Under the pieces are notes generated by a model, which was not told where the DNA came from, made no database searches, and saw only the letters and a list, made by a program, of their open reading frames with translations. A stretch of 48,393 nucleotides of DNA from Alistipes sp. (lineage in GTDB: Bacteria > Bacteroidota > Bacteroidia > Bacteroidales > Rikenellaceae). The stretch lies in assembly GCA_017623115.1 (NCBI GenBank), contig JAGAPT010000005.1, positions 1 through 48,393 of the forward strand. Reading direction: 5' to 3'. The first letter of the stretch is position 1; each line of letters begins with the position of its first letter. A program made the translations under genes and the position numbers. This document shows positions 44,401 to 48,393 of the stretch, piece after piece.

Positions 44401-45538
44401 GCGCGTGTCGCAACGGGTGGTGGATGGTGTCGGCATGGCGCTGTTGGAGATAACCGATACGGGAATGGGTATTCCGGCTCGTGATCTGCCACATATCTTC
44501 GACCGTTTCTACCAGAGCGAGAAGGGTGCCGGCGGCACAGGCTCGGGCATCGGACTGAATTTGGTCAAGCAGTATGTTGAGATGATGGGCGGTGAGGTAA
44601 CCGTCGAGTCGAAGGAGGGTGAAGGGACGCTCTTTGTGGTGCGTGTGCCGATGAATCTGTCCACTTCGTCGACTCCGGAGTCGATGCTTGCACAGGGGGA
44701 GGCGGAGGCCGAACCGGAGCCTGTGCAGCCTGCTCCGAGTGCCGAGGATATGCGTCCGACGGTGATGGTGGTCGACGATAACGATGATTTCCGTCAATAC
44801 CTGGCCCAGGAGCTGTCACGCAACTATCGGGTGGTGGTGGCTGCTAATGGCGAGGAGTGTTTGGCGAAGATTGCCACGGCCGAACCCGGCGTACTGGTGT
44901 GTGATGTGATGATGCCCGAAATGGATGGTTTTGAGGTAACCCGTCGCCTGCGTAGCAACATCGAGACCTCGCATATCCCGATTATCCTGCTCTCGGCACG
45001 CACGTCGGATGATGTGCGTCTGGAGGGCTACGAGACAGGTGCCGATGCCTATATCACCAAGCCCTTTAAGATGGATTTGCTGGAGGCTCGTATCCGCAAC
45101 CTGATTGATGAGCGGCAGCGTCGTATCTCGAACTTCTCGCAGAGTGCCGATGCCACTCCGACCCAGCTTATCGTGACGACCATCGACCAAAAACTCATGC
45201 AGCGCATCATGGAGAGTATCGAGCGGAATATGGATAATTCGGAGTATTCGGTCGAATCGCTCTCGGCCGATGCCGGCATGCACCGCATGAATCTCTATCG
45301 CAAACTGCAATCGCTGGTCGGTATGCCCCCGTCGGAGTTTATTCGTACGATGCGCCTGAAGCGTGCTGCGCAGTTGCTGCGTGAGGACCCGAAATTGACG
45401 GTCGGCGAGGTTTCGGATCGGGTCGGTTTCAATACGCCCAAATATTTCACCCGCTACTTCCGTGAGCTGTTCGGTTGTACGCCATCGCAGTATCGCAGCC
45501 GTTTCGATGGCGAGGAGATACCCAAGGAGGCCGAGTAG
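41450..45538 (+). CDS. Hybrid two-component system regulator (HTCS)
   Basis: This is a sensor-regulator of about 1362 residues in one chain. Signal/anchor MRKILFTLLALLPLSVVAAS is followed by a periplasmic sensor of two-component beta-propeller repeats (about 25-700, for example NLWVGSARSGVRIVD and RIWLGTFYNGAFCID) and a Y_Y_Y domain (YRYKLENFDKEWREI near 745). A transmembrane helix lies near 795-820. The cytoplasmic part has a histidine kinase (ISHELRTPLSL, His near 854), an ATPase domain (NNILSNAIKFTA, DTGMGIPA), a receiver (CDVMMPEMDGFE, Asp near 1155) and an AraC-type HTH (about 1250-1350). It senses an oligosaccharide and activates the PUL. GH3 follows downstream. Confidence 0.97.
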   Translation: MLMRKILFTLLALLPLSVVAASTDAYLFRMLDTNDGLPDNNVRNMVMLPDGLMAIQTSSMLNLYDGASCQSYRYDPNIIPFNEYSGLSNLYYDVDEQLLWCTSRDHVWTFDLRRRTFQYDVNEHLRHFALSADVVGFYLDAKGDYWVTTDDHALWRCNRQKGVAERIDLLSGMEAPLAFAQHDDSLWMLSRNGLLACYDVAIGTFRQMVPYEGSMSAEGVSRMDMTITSGGNLWVMFDRELLYYEVTKNRMLPVEGMQLQKGDLFTTIALDAQDNLWVGSARSGVRIVDAKTLESHQLPYLQQTNGKRIYHHTDISKIYVDKRNGVWVATLSEGLLYYHKDIVHLRTIHQKTLRGGQMPDESVKCMVEDADGTILVGTIHGLLRYDPKQATMSVPWPALSEELCISLYRDSHDRIWLGTFYNGAFCIDRGKIRHYVWPERSTVENSYHDATPNYNCVRAIYEDTKGDFWISVYGGVGRFDTERGEITLLAKEHPDLGRFMTIRDIYEAEQGFLLFAGDRGTFGYEPERGEVLMNTQHVGSMMLSNQIVEDSHRRLWVATSEGLAVVNPAIGTRTMVGAADGFPTGHVMSLAIDPLGDVWAATFSHLLRIKPLETERGLDFSVAVYGPADGVEAGAFFQRSVLLHSNGNIYFGGAHGISEVIPTRMYSDHHDVQPRISSLYISGTRIDVGKEFNGRVLLPVELSQAEPIDLRHDESFLTFEFSNLNYANPSHTTYRYKLENFDKEWREIHSHRLGRATYTYLEPGDYTFRVVAADNDIDWSEHAAEFHFTVHPPFYRTTVALIFYAVSLLSVVVVGLFYLSRRAQRRFKYRQLLEKQRQREHLDQMKLRFYTNISHELRTPLSLILLPLEGLRRELADSPHAAKLDTMHHNATQLLSLVNHLLDFRKLEMGGERLLLVQGNWAEFVENQLIPFRDATQNAGIRLIFENDMEHPVMVFDKAKMARIVNNILSNAIKFTAANGMISVRVSQRVVDGVGMALLEITDTGMGIPARDLPHIFDRFYQSEKGAGGTGSGIGLNLVKQYVEMMGGEVTVESKEGEGTLFVVRVPMNLSTSSTPESMLAQGEAEAEPEPVQPAPSAEDMRPTVMVVDDNDDFRQYLAQELSRNYRVVVAANGEECLAKIATAEPGVLVCDVMMPEMDGFEVTRRLRSNIETSHIPIILLSARTSDDVRLEGYETGADAYITKPFKMDLLEARIRNLIDERQRRISNFSQSADATPTQLIVTTIDQKLMQRIMESIERNMDNSEYSVESLSADAGMHRMNLYRKLQSLVGMPPSEFIRTMRLKRAAQLLREDPKLTVGEVSDRVGFNTPKYFTRYFRELFGCTPSQYRSRFDGEEIPKEAE

Positions 45539-45594
45539 GTAAAATTTCGCTGTCGTTCGTAGTAAATAGAGAGTTGAGAACAAACACCAAAAGT

Positions 45595-47967
45595 ATGAAA
45601 CGATGGATGAAAAGGGCTCGTGTCGGGCTCGTATGGAGTGTGCTGATGGGCGCATGTTTCGACGTGATGGGGCAGGGAATCTATCATGACGGATGGATTG
45701 ATTTTAATAAAAATGGCCGTATGGACATCTATGAAGATGCTTCGGCCGAGACGGATGCCCGTATTGAGGACCTCCTGGCGCAGATGACCCTCGAGGAGAA
45801 GAGTTGCCAGATGGCAACACTCTATGGCTCGGGGCGCGTGCTGAAAGATGTCCTCCCACATGAGGGGTGGCATCAGGAGATTTGGAAAGACGGCATCGGA
45901 AATATCGATGAGGAGCACAACGGCCTGGGGCGTTTTGGTGCAGCGTATGCTTTTCCCTATCGCACCCATGTCGATGCGAAGCACACCATTCAACGCTGGT
46001 TTGTCGAGCAGACCCGACTGGGTATCCCCGTAGATTTCACCAATGAGGGTATTCGTGGCTTGTGTCACGAACAAGCCACCTATTTCCCGGCACAGTGTGG
46101 TCAGGGTGCAACGTGGAATCGTCGGCTGATCGCCCGTATCGGAGAGGTGGAGGCTCGCGAAGCCGTAGCCTTGGGCTACACGAACATCTATTCGCCGATT
46201 TTGGATATTGCACAGGACCCTCGCTGGGGGCGGTGTGTCGAGTGCTATGGCGAAGACCCCTATCTGGTTGGTACGTTGGGTAAGGAGATGATTGGTGCAC
46301 TGCAGCGTCATCGGTTGGTCGCAACGCCCAAGCATTTTGCCGTATATAGCGTGCCGGTTGGAGGGCGTGATGGCAAGACGCGCACCGACCCGCATGTGGC
46401 ACCCCGCGAGATGCGTACCCTCTACATCGAGCCCTTCCGCATGGCGTTTCAGGAGGCCGGTGCGCTGGGTGTCATGAGTTCCTACAATGACTATGATGGC
46501 GAGCCCATTACGGGTAGCCACCGTTTCTTGACCGAGATTTTGCGTCAGGAGTGGGGCTTCCGCGGCTATGTCGTGTCGGATAGCGAGGCGGTGGAGTTCA
46601 TCTCGACGAAACACGCCGTAGAACCCTCCTACGAGCAGGGCGTAGCCCGAGCCGTGAATGCCGGATTGAATATTCGTACCCACTTTACCCCGCCCGAGGA
46701 TTATATCCTGCCGTTGCGACGTGCCGTGGAGCAGGGGCTGATTTCGGAGGCTACCATCAACGACCGCGTGCGGGATATTCTGCGCGTGAAATTCTGGTTG
46801 GGGCTCTTCGATAATCCCTATCGGGGTGATGGTGCCGAGGCAGAGCGCATCGTGCATTGTGCGGAGCATCAGGCGGTGGCACTTGAGGCTGCACGCCAAT
46901 CGCTGGTGTTGTTGAAAAATGAAGGTGGGTTCCTGCCCCTCTCAAAGCAGGTGCGCTCGGTAGCCGTCATTGGCCCCAATGCGGATGAATATCGCCAGTT
47001 GGTGTGCCGTTATGGCCCGTCGAATGCCGCCTTTAAGAGTGTGTATGCCGGCATTCGTGACCTGCTGCCCCAAGCAAAGGTCTATTATAGCAAGGGATGT
47101 GAGATTATCGACCCTCACTTCCCCGAGAGCGAGTTGATGGATTTCCCGCCGACGAAGGAGGAGCAACGGATGTTGCAGGAGGCGGTGGCGACAGCGCGTA
47201 AAGCCGATGTTGTGGTGCTGGTGCTGGGTGGTAACGAGTTGACCGTGCGTGAGGATCGTTCGCGCACGAGCCTCGATTTGCCCGGTCGACAGCAGGAACT
47301 CCTCGAGGCAATAGAGGCGACGGGAAAGCCGATTGCACTGGTGATGATTGATGGACGTGCCGCGTCGATTAACTATGCCGCCGCCCGTATTCCGGCTATC
47401 CTGCATGGCTGGTTCCCGGGTGAGTTCTGCGGACAGGCAGTGGCCGAGGCACTCTTTGGTGATTATAATCCGGGAGGACGCCTGGCGGTAACCTTCCCCA
47501 AGTCGGTGGGACAGATACCCTTTGCATTCCCCTTCAAGCCGGGCTCGGACGAGAGCTCGACAACGGCTGTATATGGAGCCCTCTATCCCTTTGGACATGG
47601 GTTGAGCTATACCCGCTTTGCCTATAGCGACCTCCGCATTACCCCCGACCGGATAGGCCCGCAGGGAACGGTAACGGTGCGTTGCAAGGTGAAAAATGTA
47701 GGGGCACGTCAAGGCGATGAGGTGGTACAGCTCTACCTGCGTGATGAGGTGAGTAGCGTGACGACCTATGTGAAGGTGTTGCGTGGTTTTGACCGCATTT
47801 CGCTGGCTCCGGGTGAGGAGCAGGAGGTAACCTTCACGCTGACCCCGCAACATTTGGGCTTGTGGGATAAGCAGATGCAGTTCTGTGTCGAGCCGGGACG
47901 TTGCCGCGTGATGGTGGGAGCCTCCTCGACCGATATCCGTCTGGAGGGGGCCTTTGAGGTGAAGTAA
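45595..47967 (+). CDS. GH3 family beta-glycosidase
   Basis: The start is placed at the ATG at 45595 (MKRWMKRARVGLVWSVLMGA, signal peptide), giving 790 residues; the longer open frame overlaps the end of the HTCS gene. The (alpha/beta)8 domain has IYSPILDIAQDPRWGRCVEC, GEDPYLVGTLGKEMI and GYVVSDSEAVEFISTKH with the nucleophile Asp near 328. The second domain has RQSLVLLKNEGGFLPLSK and the last is a fibronectin-III-like domain (GPQGTVTVRCKVKNVGARQG). Typical activities are beta-glucosidase or beta-xylosidase. It follows the HTCS gene by 56 bases and belongs to the same PUL. Confidence 0.94.
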   Translation: MKRWMKRARVGLVWSVLMGACFDVMGQGIYHDGWIDFNKNGRMDIYEDASAETDARIEDLLAQMTLEEKSCQMATLYGSGRVLKDVLPHEGWHQEIWKDGIGNIDEEHNGLGRFGAAYAFPYRTHVDAKHTIQRWFVEQTRLGIPVDFTNEGIRGLCHEQATYFPAQCGQGATWNRRLIARIGEVEAREAVALGYTNIYSPILDIAQDPRWGRCVECYGEDPYLVGTLGKEMIGALQRHRLVATPKHFAVYSVPVGGRDGKTRTDPHVAPREMRTLYIEPFRMAFQEAGALGVMSSYNDYDGEPITGSHRFLTEILRQEWGFRGYVVSDSEAVEFISTKHAVEPSYEQGVARAVNAGLNIRTHFTPPEDYILPLRRAVEQGLISEATINDRVRDILRVKFWLGLFDNPYRGDGAEAERIVHCAEHQAVALEAARQSLVLLKNEGGFLPLSKQVRSVAVIGPNADEYRQLVCRYGPSNAAFKSVYAGIRDLLPQAKVYYSKGCEIIDPHFPESELMDFPPTKEEQRMLQEAVATARKADVVVLVLGGNELTVREDRSRTSLDLPGRQQELLEAIEATGKPIALVMIDGRAASINYAAARIPAILHGWFPGEFCGQAVAEALFGDYNPGGRLAVTFPKSVGQIPFAFPFKPGSDESSTTAVYGALYPFGHGLSYTRFAYSDLRITPDRIGPQGTVTVRCKVKNVGARQGDEVVQLYLRDEVSSVTTYVKVLRGFDRISLAPGEEQEVTFTLTPQHLGLWDKQMQFCVEPGRCRVMVGASSTDIRLEGAFEVK

Positions 47968-47985
47968 TAGTGTTTAGTACTAAAA

Positions 47986-48016
47986 GAAAAAGGAGCAAGG
48001 TTGTTGCTCCTTTTTC
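47986..48016 (+). terminator. Terminator after the GH3 gene
   Basis: GAAAAAGGAGCAA (47986-47998) pairs with TTGCTCCTTTTTC (48004-48016) around a five-base loop; T-rich on both strands. Confidence 0.9.
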
Positions 48017-48040
48017 TTTATTGCGTGTTGTGCAGGGAAT

Positions 48041-48069
48041 AAAAAAAGCGACAACCGAAATGTTGTCGC
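48041..48069 (-). terminator. Terminator, module 1
   Basis: GCGACAAC and GTTGTCGC (48048-48055 with 48062-48069) form an 8-bp stem; T7 follows on the minus strand. Confidence 0.9.
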
Positions 48070-48071
48070 CT

Positions 48072-48099
48072 TGGTGGAGAATACCGGGGTCGAACCGGT
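48072..48099 (-). other. tRNA 3'-end fragment, module 1
   Basis: On the minus strand ACCGG-TTCGACC-CCGGT is a perfect T arm (5-bp stem, 7-base loop with the TTC start), followed by ATTCTCC, discriminator A and CCA. There is no GGAGAAT 5' acceptor strand, D arm or anticodon arm upstream, so this is a fragment, not an intact gene. Confidence 0.75.
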
Positions 48100-48198
48100 G
48101 CGCAATGTGGATTGCGCACACAAGATATAGACAAACCCTCCAAACCTCCCTTTGAAAAGGGAGACTTATCGGTCACCGGTTCGTGTTGAGCAGGAGAC

Positions 48199-48227
48199 AA
48201 AAAAAGCGACAACCGAAATGTTGTCGC
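48199..48227 (-). terminator. Terminator, module 2
   Basis: This is identical to the module 1 terminator: stem 48206-48213 with 48220-48227, then T7 on the minus strand. Confidence 0.9.
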
Positions 48228-48229
48228 CT

Positions 48230-48257
48230 TGGTGGAGAATACCGGGGTCGAACCGGT
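48230..48257 (-). other. tRNA 3'-end fragment, module 2
   Basis: This is identical over 28 bases to the module 1 fragment, again with an encoded CCA and no 5' half. The sequence just upstream, GTGCGC-TT-GCGCAC, could be a remnant of a long variable arm. Confidence 0.75.
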
Positions 48258-48348
48258 GCGCAAGCGCACTTCAACTATAGACAAACCCTCCAAACCTCCC
48301 TTTGAAAAGGGAGGCTTATCGGTCACCGGTTCGTGTTGAGCAGGAGAC

Positions 48349-48377
48349 AAAAAAAGCGACAACCGAAATGTTGTCGC
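48349..48377 (-). terminator. Terminator, module 3
   Basis: This is the third identical stem (48356-48363 with 48370-48377) and T7 run. Confidence 0.9.
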
Positions 48378-48379
48378 CT

Positions 48380-48393
48380 TGGTGGAGAATACC
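48380..48393 (-). tRNA. tRNA 3' end running off the window (intact gene or third fragment)
   Basis: The minus strand shows GGTATTCTCCACCA, the same acceptor end and CCA. The window stops inside the T stem, so it cannot be told whether an intact tRNA gene (expected 5' end GGAGAAT) lies beyond. The isoacceptor is unknown. Confidence 0.4.

What the first reader, a model, noticed from the sequence alone, without database searches (positions are those of the whole stretch)
48041..48393. Tandem array of tRNA 3' ends, each with its own terminator and a G-rich palindrome
Three modules of 150-158 bases repeat a 28-base tRNA 3' end (perfect T arm, acceptor strand, CCA) plus an identical terminator, without the 5' tRNA half. 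Between them lie a palindrome (CTCCCTTT/AAAGGGAG) with TTTGGAGGG tail, resembling dispersed repeats of Bacteroidetes, and a variable hairpin. Possible explanations are leftover attachment-site copies from elements that integrate in a tRNA 3' end, a self-amplifying repeat using the tRNA end, or a family of short structured RNAs with tRNA-like ends. No described system with this layout is known to me.
Basis: partly seen in the sequence, partly recalled or inferred. Interest (0 to 1): 0.75.

Follow-up and report, generated by a model that had tools for sequence, protein, structure and literature searches.

The report
Stacked tRNA-end-restoring palindromic insertion cassettes
Short gene-free pieces of DNA appear to have slipped, one behind another, into the end of a tRNA gene in a gut bacterium, each carrying a spare copy of that gene's tail plus a stretch complementary to the insertion point, and the same pattern recurs in other tRNA and protein genes of its relatives, with the enzyme that would move them unknown.

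Summary
At the end of MAG contig G000:C47, two full modules and a cut third (158 and 150 bp apart) repeat a tRNA-Ala(GGC) 3' end from the T-loop onward, each with a terminator. In a relative (L085, Alistipes sp. RGIG3003) the intact tRNA-Ala stands directly in front of such an array. Each module follows a layout also found at tRNA-Thr and -Leu and inside the 3' coding ends of RNase Y, a Der-like GTPase and a TonB-type receptor: A | B - spacer/terminator - A' - G-rich palindrome E - hairpin or short linker - B. B restores the interrupted gene's end. A' is an inverted copy of the target around the junction and mostly changes with it between species. I read these as small ORF-less mobile cassettes whose A' marks, and perhaps guides to, the insertion point, as guide sequences do in IS200/IS605 and REP elements. 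Y1 transposase (1 of 101 genomes) and reverse transcriptase (1 of 12) are nearly absent; islands with tyrosine recombinases in the same tRNAs have breakpoints 22 nt or more further upstream. The moving enzyme is unknown, and mobility itself is inferred. Replication template switching at hairpins is the main rival. tRNA-like RNAs and assembly artefact are disfavoured.

The parts
48041..48070 (-). terminator of the distal module
   Evidence: identical to the other two copies
48072..48094 (-). B: tRNA-Ala 3' end from T-loop to acceptor (distal, displaced copy)
   Evidence: matches the 3' end of intact tRNA-Ala in L085 apart from the CCA base
48098..48119 (-). variable hairpin h abutting the tRNA copy
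   Evidence: RNAfold of a 32-nt stretch around it, -13.5 kcal/mol
48126..48163 (-). G-rich palindrome E
   Evidence: dispersed in the genus
48171..48183 (-). A': inverted copy of tRNA variable loop/T-stem/T-loop start (CGAACCGGTGACC)
   Evidence: complement of GGTCACCGGTTCG in the intact gene of the relative (L041/L085); the window's own intact gene is off the contig
48184..48198 (-). spacer between terminator and A'
48199..48228 (-). terminator of the middle module
48230..48252 (-). B: tRNA-Ala 3' end, middle copy
48256..48269 (-). variable hairpin h, middle module
   Evidence: RNAfold of a 24-nt stretch around it, -6.6 kcal/mol
48276..48313 (-). G-rich palindrome E, middle module
48321..48333 (-). 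A', second copy
48334..48348 (-). spacer
48349..48378 (-). terminator of the module cut by the contig end
48380..48393 (-). stub of the third tRNA 3' end; the intact tRNA-Ala is expected beyond the contig end
   Evidence: tRNA-Ala(GGC) patterns not found in the MAG

Best explanation
The array is a stack of small (about 150 bp) ORF-less insertion cassettes lodged in the T-loop of a tRNA-Ala(GGC) gene. SHOWN: each module reads [B - terminator/spacer - A' - palindrome E - hairpin h]; in relatives such modules sit between target halves A and B, so the gene has its 3' end from the module while another copy of the end lies downstream; A' is an inverted copy of the target around the A|B junction; E is a palindrome dispersed in Rikenellaceae; the same layout occurs in several tRNA and protein genes. 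INFERRED: the cassettes are mobile in trans. In single-stranded DNA A' pairs with A and brings E and the cut site together, h or the linker marks the other cut, and joining A to B and h to B inserts the cassette, as guide sequences do in IS200/IS605. Tandem units come from repeated insertion at the regenerated A|B site or from recombination between B copies. The enzyme is unknown; no Pfam-recognised Y1 transposase or reverse transcriptase was found in G000.
For: Intact tRNA-Ala then array in L085. T-loop breakpoint in all 30 further copies found: 12 of 45 distinct tRNA-Ala(GGC) and 14 of 52 distinct tRNA-Thr(CGT) loci among those held; identity 5' of the T-loop 0-7 nt. Direct repeat across E in 48 of 109 usable distinct E copies. 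Inverted copy of nearby sequence beside E: score 11 or more on 19 of 85 sides against 1 of 85 in a reversed-not-complemented control. A' follows A between orthologues: RNase Y GACGTATCC (L087), GACTTATCC (L054, L064, L094), GACGTACCC (L108); receptor gene L023, L016, L122; tRNA-Thr L011, L178. Breaks in the protein genes lie inside coding sequence and B supplies the last codons. IS200/IS605 precedent: PMC6006769 (passages), PMC5934647 (abstract).
Against: No enzyme found: PF01797 in 1 of 101 genomes, PF00078 in 1 of 12. 61 of 109 usable E copies have no direct repeat; 28 of 46 contexts have no significant inverted flank, and of the 18 sides printed with score 11 or more, 7 are spaced 25 nt or less, i.e. 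local hairpins that an ordinary terminator could give and that the control does not remove. A' reached p<0.05 in 20 of 48 direct-repeat cases and p<0.01 in 6 (null partly contaminated by orthologues). E stands in either orientation relative to A'. No strand bias by GC skew (7 of 21 positive, p=0.19). No clean before/after strain pair. Covariation could come from inverted-repeat conversion. A' mismatches A at the junction in L146, L151, L152, L181, L187, L193, L196, L232 and elsewhere in L015 and L231. Some T-loop inserts lack E. One search did not score the window's A' as significant (7.0, p=0.116), its intact A being off the contig.
Confidence: 0.48

Rival explanations
1. No transposition of cassettes: E palindromes (inserted or inherited) stall replication, and fold-back template switching plus slippage makes the inverted copy A', the hairpin h and the tandem B copies in place.
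For: A' and h look like snap-back products; in L028, L022 and L034 the terminator hairpin is extended into the tRNA end. E is a hairpin with a G-rich tail of quadruplex-like pattern (103 of 112 cores against 29 of 2240 random windows; largely by construction, since copies were picked by a G-rich consensus). No enzyme found. Part of the inverted-copy signal is local hairpins.
Against: Does not by itself explain why A', h and the second B all meet at one junction, why that junction is the T-loop in 26 tRNA loci of two tRNA types and with different inserts, or why terminators of successive tRNA ends differ (L011, L029).
Confidence: 0.32
2. Remnants of attachment sites: elements with tyrosine recombinases integrate in tRNA T-loops and leave att copies behind.
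For: Islands occur in these same tRNA genes: integrases confirmed by Pfam beside tRNA-Thr in G000 and G020; beside tRNA-Ala in G053 and G099 judged by eye. A T-arm is a plausible recombinase core (recalled).
Against: Far-end tRNA copies match for 22 nt (G053), 28 nt (G000) and 52 nt, the whole 5' part (G020), upstream of the T-loop; a detached copy in G099, 183 kb away on the other strand and so not a plain island end, matches for 26 nt. Cassette copies match 0-7 nt. The same E and layout sit in tRNA-Leu, RNase Y, Der-like and receptor genes.
Confidence: 0.12
3. A family of short structured RNAs with tRNA-like 3' ends.
For: Each module has its own terminator and hairpins.
Against: No Rfam family reaches its gathering score over 47950-48393. 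In 18 of 30 copies at most 2 nt of the tRNA's 5' T-stem strand are kept. Same layout in protein genes.
Confidence: 0.04
4. Assembly artefact.
For: The array reaches a contig end in G000, G088, G100 and G079.
Against: Arrays are bridged inside contigs of other genomes and projects (L011, L159, L087).
Confidence: 0.02

Closest known systems
REP sequences / TnpA-REP (RAYT) systems
   Same: Short dispersed palindromes near gene ends, no ORF, thought to move in trans; a guide motif 5' of the hairpin foot (PMC6006769, passages)
   Different: Y1 transposase found in 1 of 101 genus genomes; here A' is about 9-17 nt and target-specific instead of a fixed tetranucleotide; the module carries a gene 3' end
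IS200/IS605 insertion sequences
   Same: Target recognised by base pairing with the element's DNA; target choice can be reprogrammed and lengthened to 12/17 nt by design (PMC5934647, abstract)
   Different: No transposase gene, far smaller, long left arm that restores the gene, E in either orientation, and pairing here is seen only as sequence complementarity
tRNA-targeted integrative elements (tyrosine recombinases)
   Same: Restore the interrupted tRNA 3' end from the element
   Different: Islands in the same tRNAs have breakpoints further upstream; modules are about 150 bp and also sit in unrelated genes
Rickettsia palindromic elements
   Same: Palindromes found inside genes (recalled; only a search listing seen)
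   Different: Not described (from recall) as carrying a duplicated gene end or a target-complementary arm

Membership tests
REP/RAYT | Y1 HUH transposase (PF01797) in the genome | tested here: not met
   1 of 101 genus genomes, not G000
REP/RAYT | short dispersed palindrome | tested here: met
   112 distinct E copies in the loci held, 92 with a perfect 7-nt arm complement within 70 nt upstream
REP/RAYT | GTAG/CGTC-type tag at the foot | not tested
   no formal scan made; such a tag is not evident in the copies listed
IS200/IS605 | guide complementary to the flanking target | tested here: inconclusive
   target-complementary arm A' present in many but not all cases; longer than in the known family and not shown to guide anything
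IS200/IS605 | TnpA Y1 transposase | tested here: not met
Tyrosine-recombinase att remnant | same breakpoint as integrated islands in the same tRNA | tested here: not met
   three islands: 22, 28 and 52 nt of tRNA identity 5' of the T-loop against 0-7 nt in 30 cassette copies; few islands examined
Retroelement | reverse transcriptase in the host | tested here: not met
   PF00078 in 1 of 12 genomes, not G000; an enzyme from elsewhere could have acted earlier
tRNA-like RNA | conserved T-arm and acceptor end | tested here: not met
   at most 2 nt of the 5' T-stem strand kept in 18 of 30 copies
Integron cassette | attC site and IntI | not tested
   no IntI or attC search made

The most novel reading that the evidence does not exclude
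A new class of programmable homing element: tiny gene-free DNA cassettes that find their insertion point through a 9-17 nt arm complementary to the target, insert inside housekeeping genes and tRNAs, and rebuild the interrupted gene from a carried 3' end, moved by an enzyme not yet known.
Probability: 0.25. Interest if true: 0.88.

Novelty: new variant of a known kind. Interest (0 to 1): 0.62.

Why it matters
If A' guides insertion, this is a natural DNA-guided insertion system that keeps the target gene whole, with pairing longer than the tetranucleotide of IS608, which was lengthened by design (PMC5934647, abstract). Even if it is only replication-born, it shows repeated partial gene duplication at precise points inside tRNA and housekeeping genes of gut bacteria, may explain why tRNA-Ala(GGC) is missing from this MAG, and offers a testable model of how palindromic repeats spread without a recognised transposase.

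Tried and rejected
RAYT/IS200 transposase as driver: PF01797 in 1 of 101 genomes. Reverse transcription: PF00078 in 1 of 12. A transposase gene beside E: clustering 905 predicted ORFs from the 67 named loci gave 12 clusters shared by four or more loci, mostly neighbours of RNase Y or receptor-type genes, none transposase-like by eye; not scanned with Pfam. Viral or plasmid carriage: no exact E in IMG/VR, no match of the array in PLSDB; the GenBank phage collection was not searched. Known RNA family: none at gathering score over 47950-48393. Replication strand bias: none. Array beside the same GH3 gene: only G000 among the 81 genomes (its own plus relatives), a set without G088. Outgroup control: 12 of 149 order genomes have the tRNA-Ala pattern; 9 loci could be scored, 8 without a downstream copy (one of them, L253, with only 156 nt to look at) and 1, L258, with a different tandem array; 3 were not scorable by my T-loop pattern. 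The first regex for E was wrong (6 copies) and was replaced. Literature: the listings showed no paper on this layout by title or abstract start; that is absence in those searches of this library only. Bacteroidetes are named among hosts of CGTC repeats and of some TnpA-REP subclasses (PMC3733652, PMC6006769, passages).

Full report
WHAT IS THERE. On the minus strand the window ends with two complete modules and a stub. Each module reads: tRNA-Ala 3' end from the T-loop (B), terminator, 15-nt spacer, CGAACCGGTGACC (A'), palindrome with G-rich tail (E), variable hairpin (h), then the next B. The contig stops there. Two tRNA-Ala(GGC) patterns, each with up to 2 mismatches, find nothing in the 99% complete MAG, as expected if the gene lies just beyond. 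In the relative G088 (Alistipes sp. RGIG3003, JAFSBY010000025, L085) the intact tRNA-Ala(GGC) stands immediately before a homologous array, and contig JAFSBY010000026 (L067) ends in what looks like its far side. Outside the array neither of these loci matches the window by blastn, and the gene beside the array in L067 is not the GH3 gene of the window.

SAME LAYOUT, OTHER TARGETS. E is dispersed: 71 of 101 genus genomes match the array DNA, mostly by E, and all 67 stretches with an exact E pattern in the collection of 84,980 species are titled Alistipes, Tidjanibacter or Rikenellaceae. Around E the layout A | B - s - A' - E - h - B recurs at tRNA-Thr (L011, L115), tRNA-Ala with other palindromes (L020, L146, L151, L152, L155, L159, L196), tRNA-Leu (L028), RNase Y (L042, L054, L087, L094, L108; Pfam run for L108 only), a Der-like GTPase (L039, L070, L113; name recalled from sequence) and a TonB-type receptor (L023, L016, L122; name recalled). 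In the protein genes the break lies inside the coding sequence and B supplies the last codons and the stop. In the protein genes h is often a short linker rather than a hairpin. In the cases read by eye E faces the same way as the gene in the T-loop cassettes of tRNA-Ala and tRNA-Thr, and the opposite way in the protein genes and tRNA-Leu.

NUMBERS. Of 112 distinct E copies in the loci held, 3 were too near a contig end; 48 of the other 109 have a direct repeat across E and 61 do not. Grouped into 46 contexts, 18 have a significant inverted copy of nearby sequence beside E (p 0.02 or less against both other loci and shuffles); by score (11 or more) 19 of 85 sides against 1 of 85 for the reversed-not-complemented control. 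Of the 18 such sides printed, 11 are spaced 38 nt or more and 7 are local hairpins of 25 nt or less, which a terminator could give. Of distinct tRNA loci held, 12 of 45 Ala(GGC) and 14 of 52 Thr(CGT) have at least one further copy downstream, 30 copies in all; identity to the tRNA ends 0-7 nt 5' of the T-loop in every one, at most 2 nt in 18 and 6-7 nt in 11. This count includes inserts without E. The loci held are not a random sample: some were fetched because they match E, and not every Thr place was fetched.

A' TRACKS A. Side by side, A' complements A over about 9-17 nt across the junction. In RNase Y three synonymous haplotypes of A are matched by three haplotypes of A', with one lasting mismatch outside the changing bases. 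Receptor genes (L023, L016, L122) and tRNA-Thr (L011, L178) do likewise; L015 and L231 fit less well. In several lineages A' mismatches A for 3-7 nt right at the junction while both sides still pair (L146, L151, L152, L181, L187, L193, L196, L232). In L009 (G100) A' fits a neighbour lineage's T-stem one base better than its own. Any model must meet these facts.

HOW IT MIGHT WORK. The topology resembles IS200/IS605 left ends: target | left arm - guide - hairpin, where the guide pairs with the target flank (PMC6006769 passages; PMC5934647 abstract). Here the left arm is B plus terminator, so insertion leaves the gene whole, and the putative guide is longer. This is inference; no enzyme, intermediate or before/after pair was seen. 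Y1 and RT families are nearly absent. The main rival is fold-back template switching at hairpins.

WHAT IT PROBABLY IS NOT. Integrase islands occupy the same tRNAs (Pfam for the integrases beside tRNA-Thr in G000 and G020; beside tRNA-Ala in G053 by eye). Their far-end tRNA copies match the tRNA for 22 nt (G053), 28 nt (G000) and 52 nt (G020) upstream of the T-loop, so they differ from the cassettes. A copy in G099 (26 nt) lies 183 kb away on the other strand and is no plain island end. No Rfam family reaches its gathering score over the array, and the T-arm is often not preserved. Contigs of other projects bridge arrays.

VERDICT. Real and, to my knowledge and in the searches made, undescribed in this form: a new variant of non-autonomous palindromic repeats, with the possibility of a new guided insertion mechanism.

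Noticed in passing
L258 (G124, another family of the order), from about position 1475: After an intact tRNA-Ala(GGC), a tandem array of tRNA-derived modules that keep D-arm and T-arm sequence but have another 5' end and anticodon arm.
   Followed up: partly
L148, L160, L164, L182, L221, L222: A second class of insert at the tRNA T-loop without E: a different structured core, with a hairpin abutting or close to the T-loop in most of them.
   Followed up: partly
L165, L166, L219, L228: A third kind of insert at the tRNA-Thr T-loop, G+C-rich, with a similar breakpoint.
   Followed up: no
L010, L059, L125, L126, L128: E inside a longer repeat whose right end resembles a promoter upstream of different genes, one of them rnpB-like (promoter and rnpB recalled).
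   Followed up: no
L029 and L004: A second palindrome family (CCCCTTTCAGGGG with a GGGGGTGTAAATATA tail in L029) beside tRNA-Gly.
   Followed up: no
L235 (G000:C9:48800-66600): A 16-kb integrase-bearing island between tRNA-Thr and a partial tRNA-Thr copy that is itself followed by A' and E.
   Followed up: partly
L013, L040, L052, L106: E copies near 5S rRNA-like sequence or short fragments of it (5S recalled).
   Followed up: no
E copies in G000 and G088: E with GGGTTTGTC rather than GGGATTGTC is common in G000 and G088, also at RNase Y of G088 (L108), hinting at spread or conversion within a genome.
   Followed up: no
window 45475-47967: Ordinary glycoside hydrolase family 3 gene next to the array.
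   Followed up: yes
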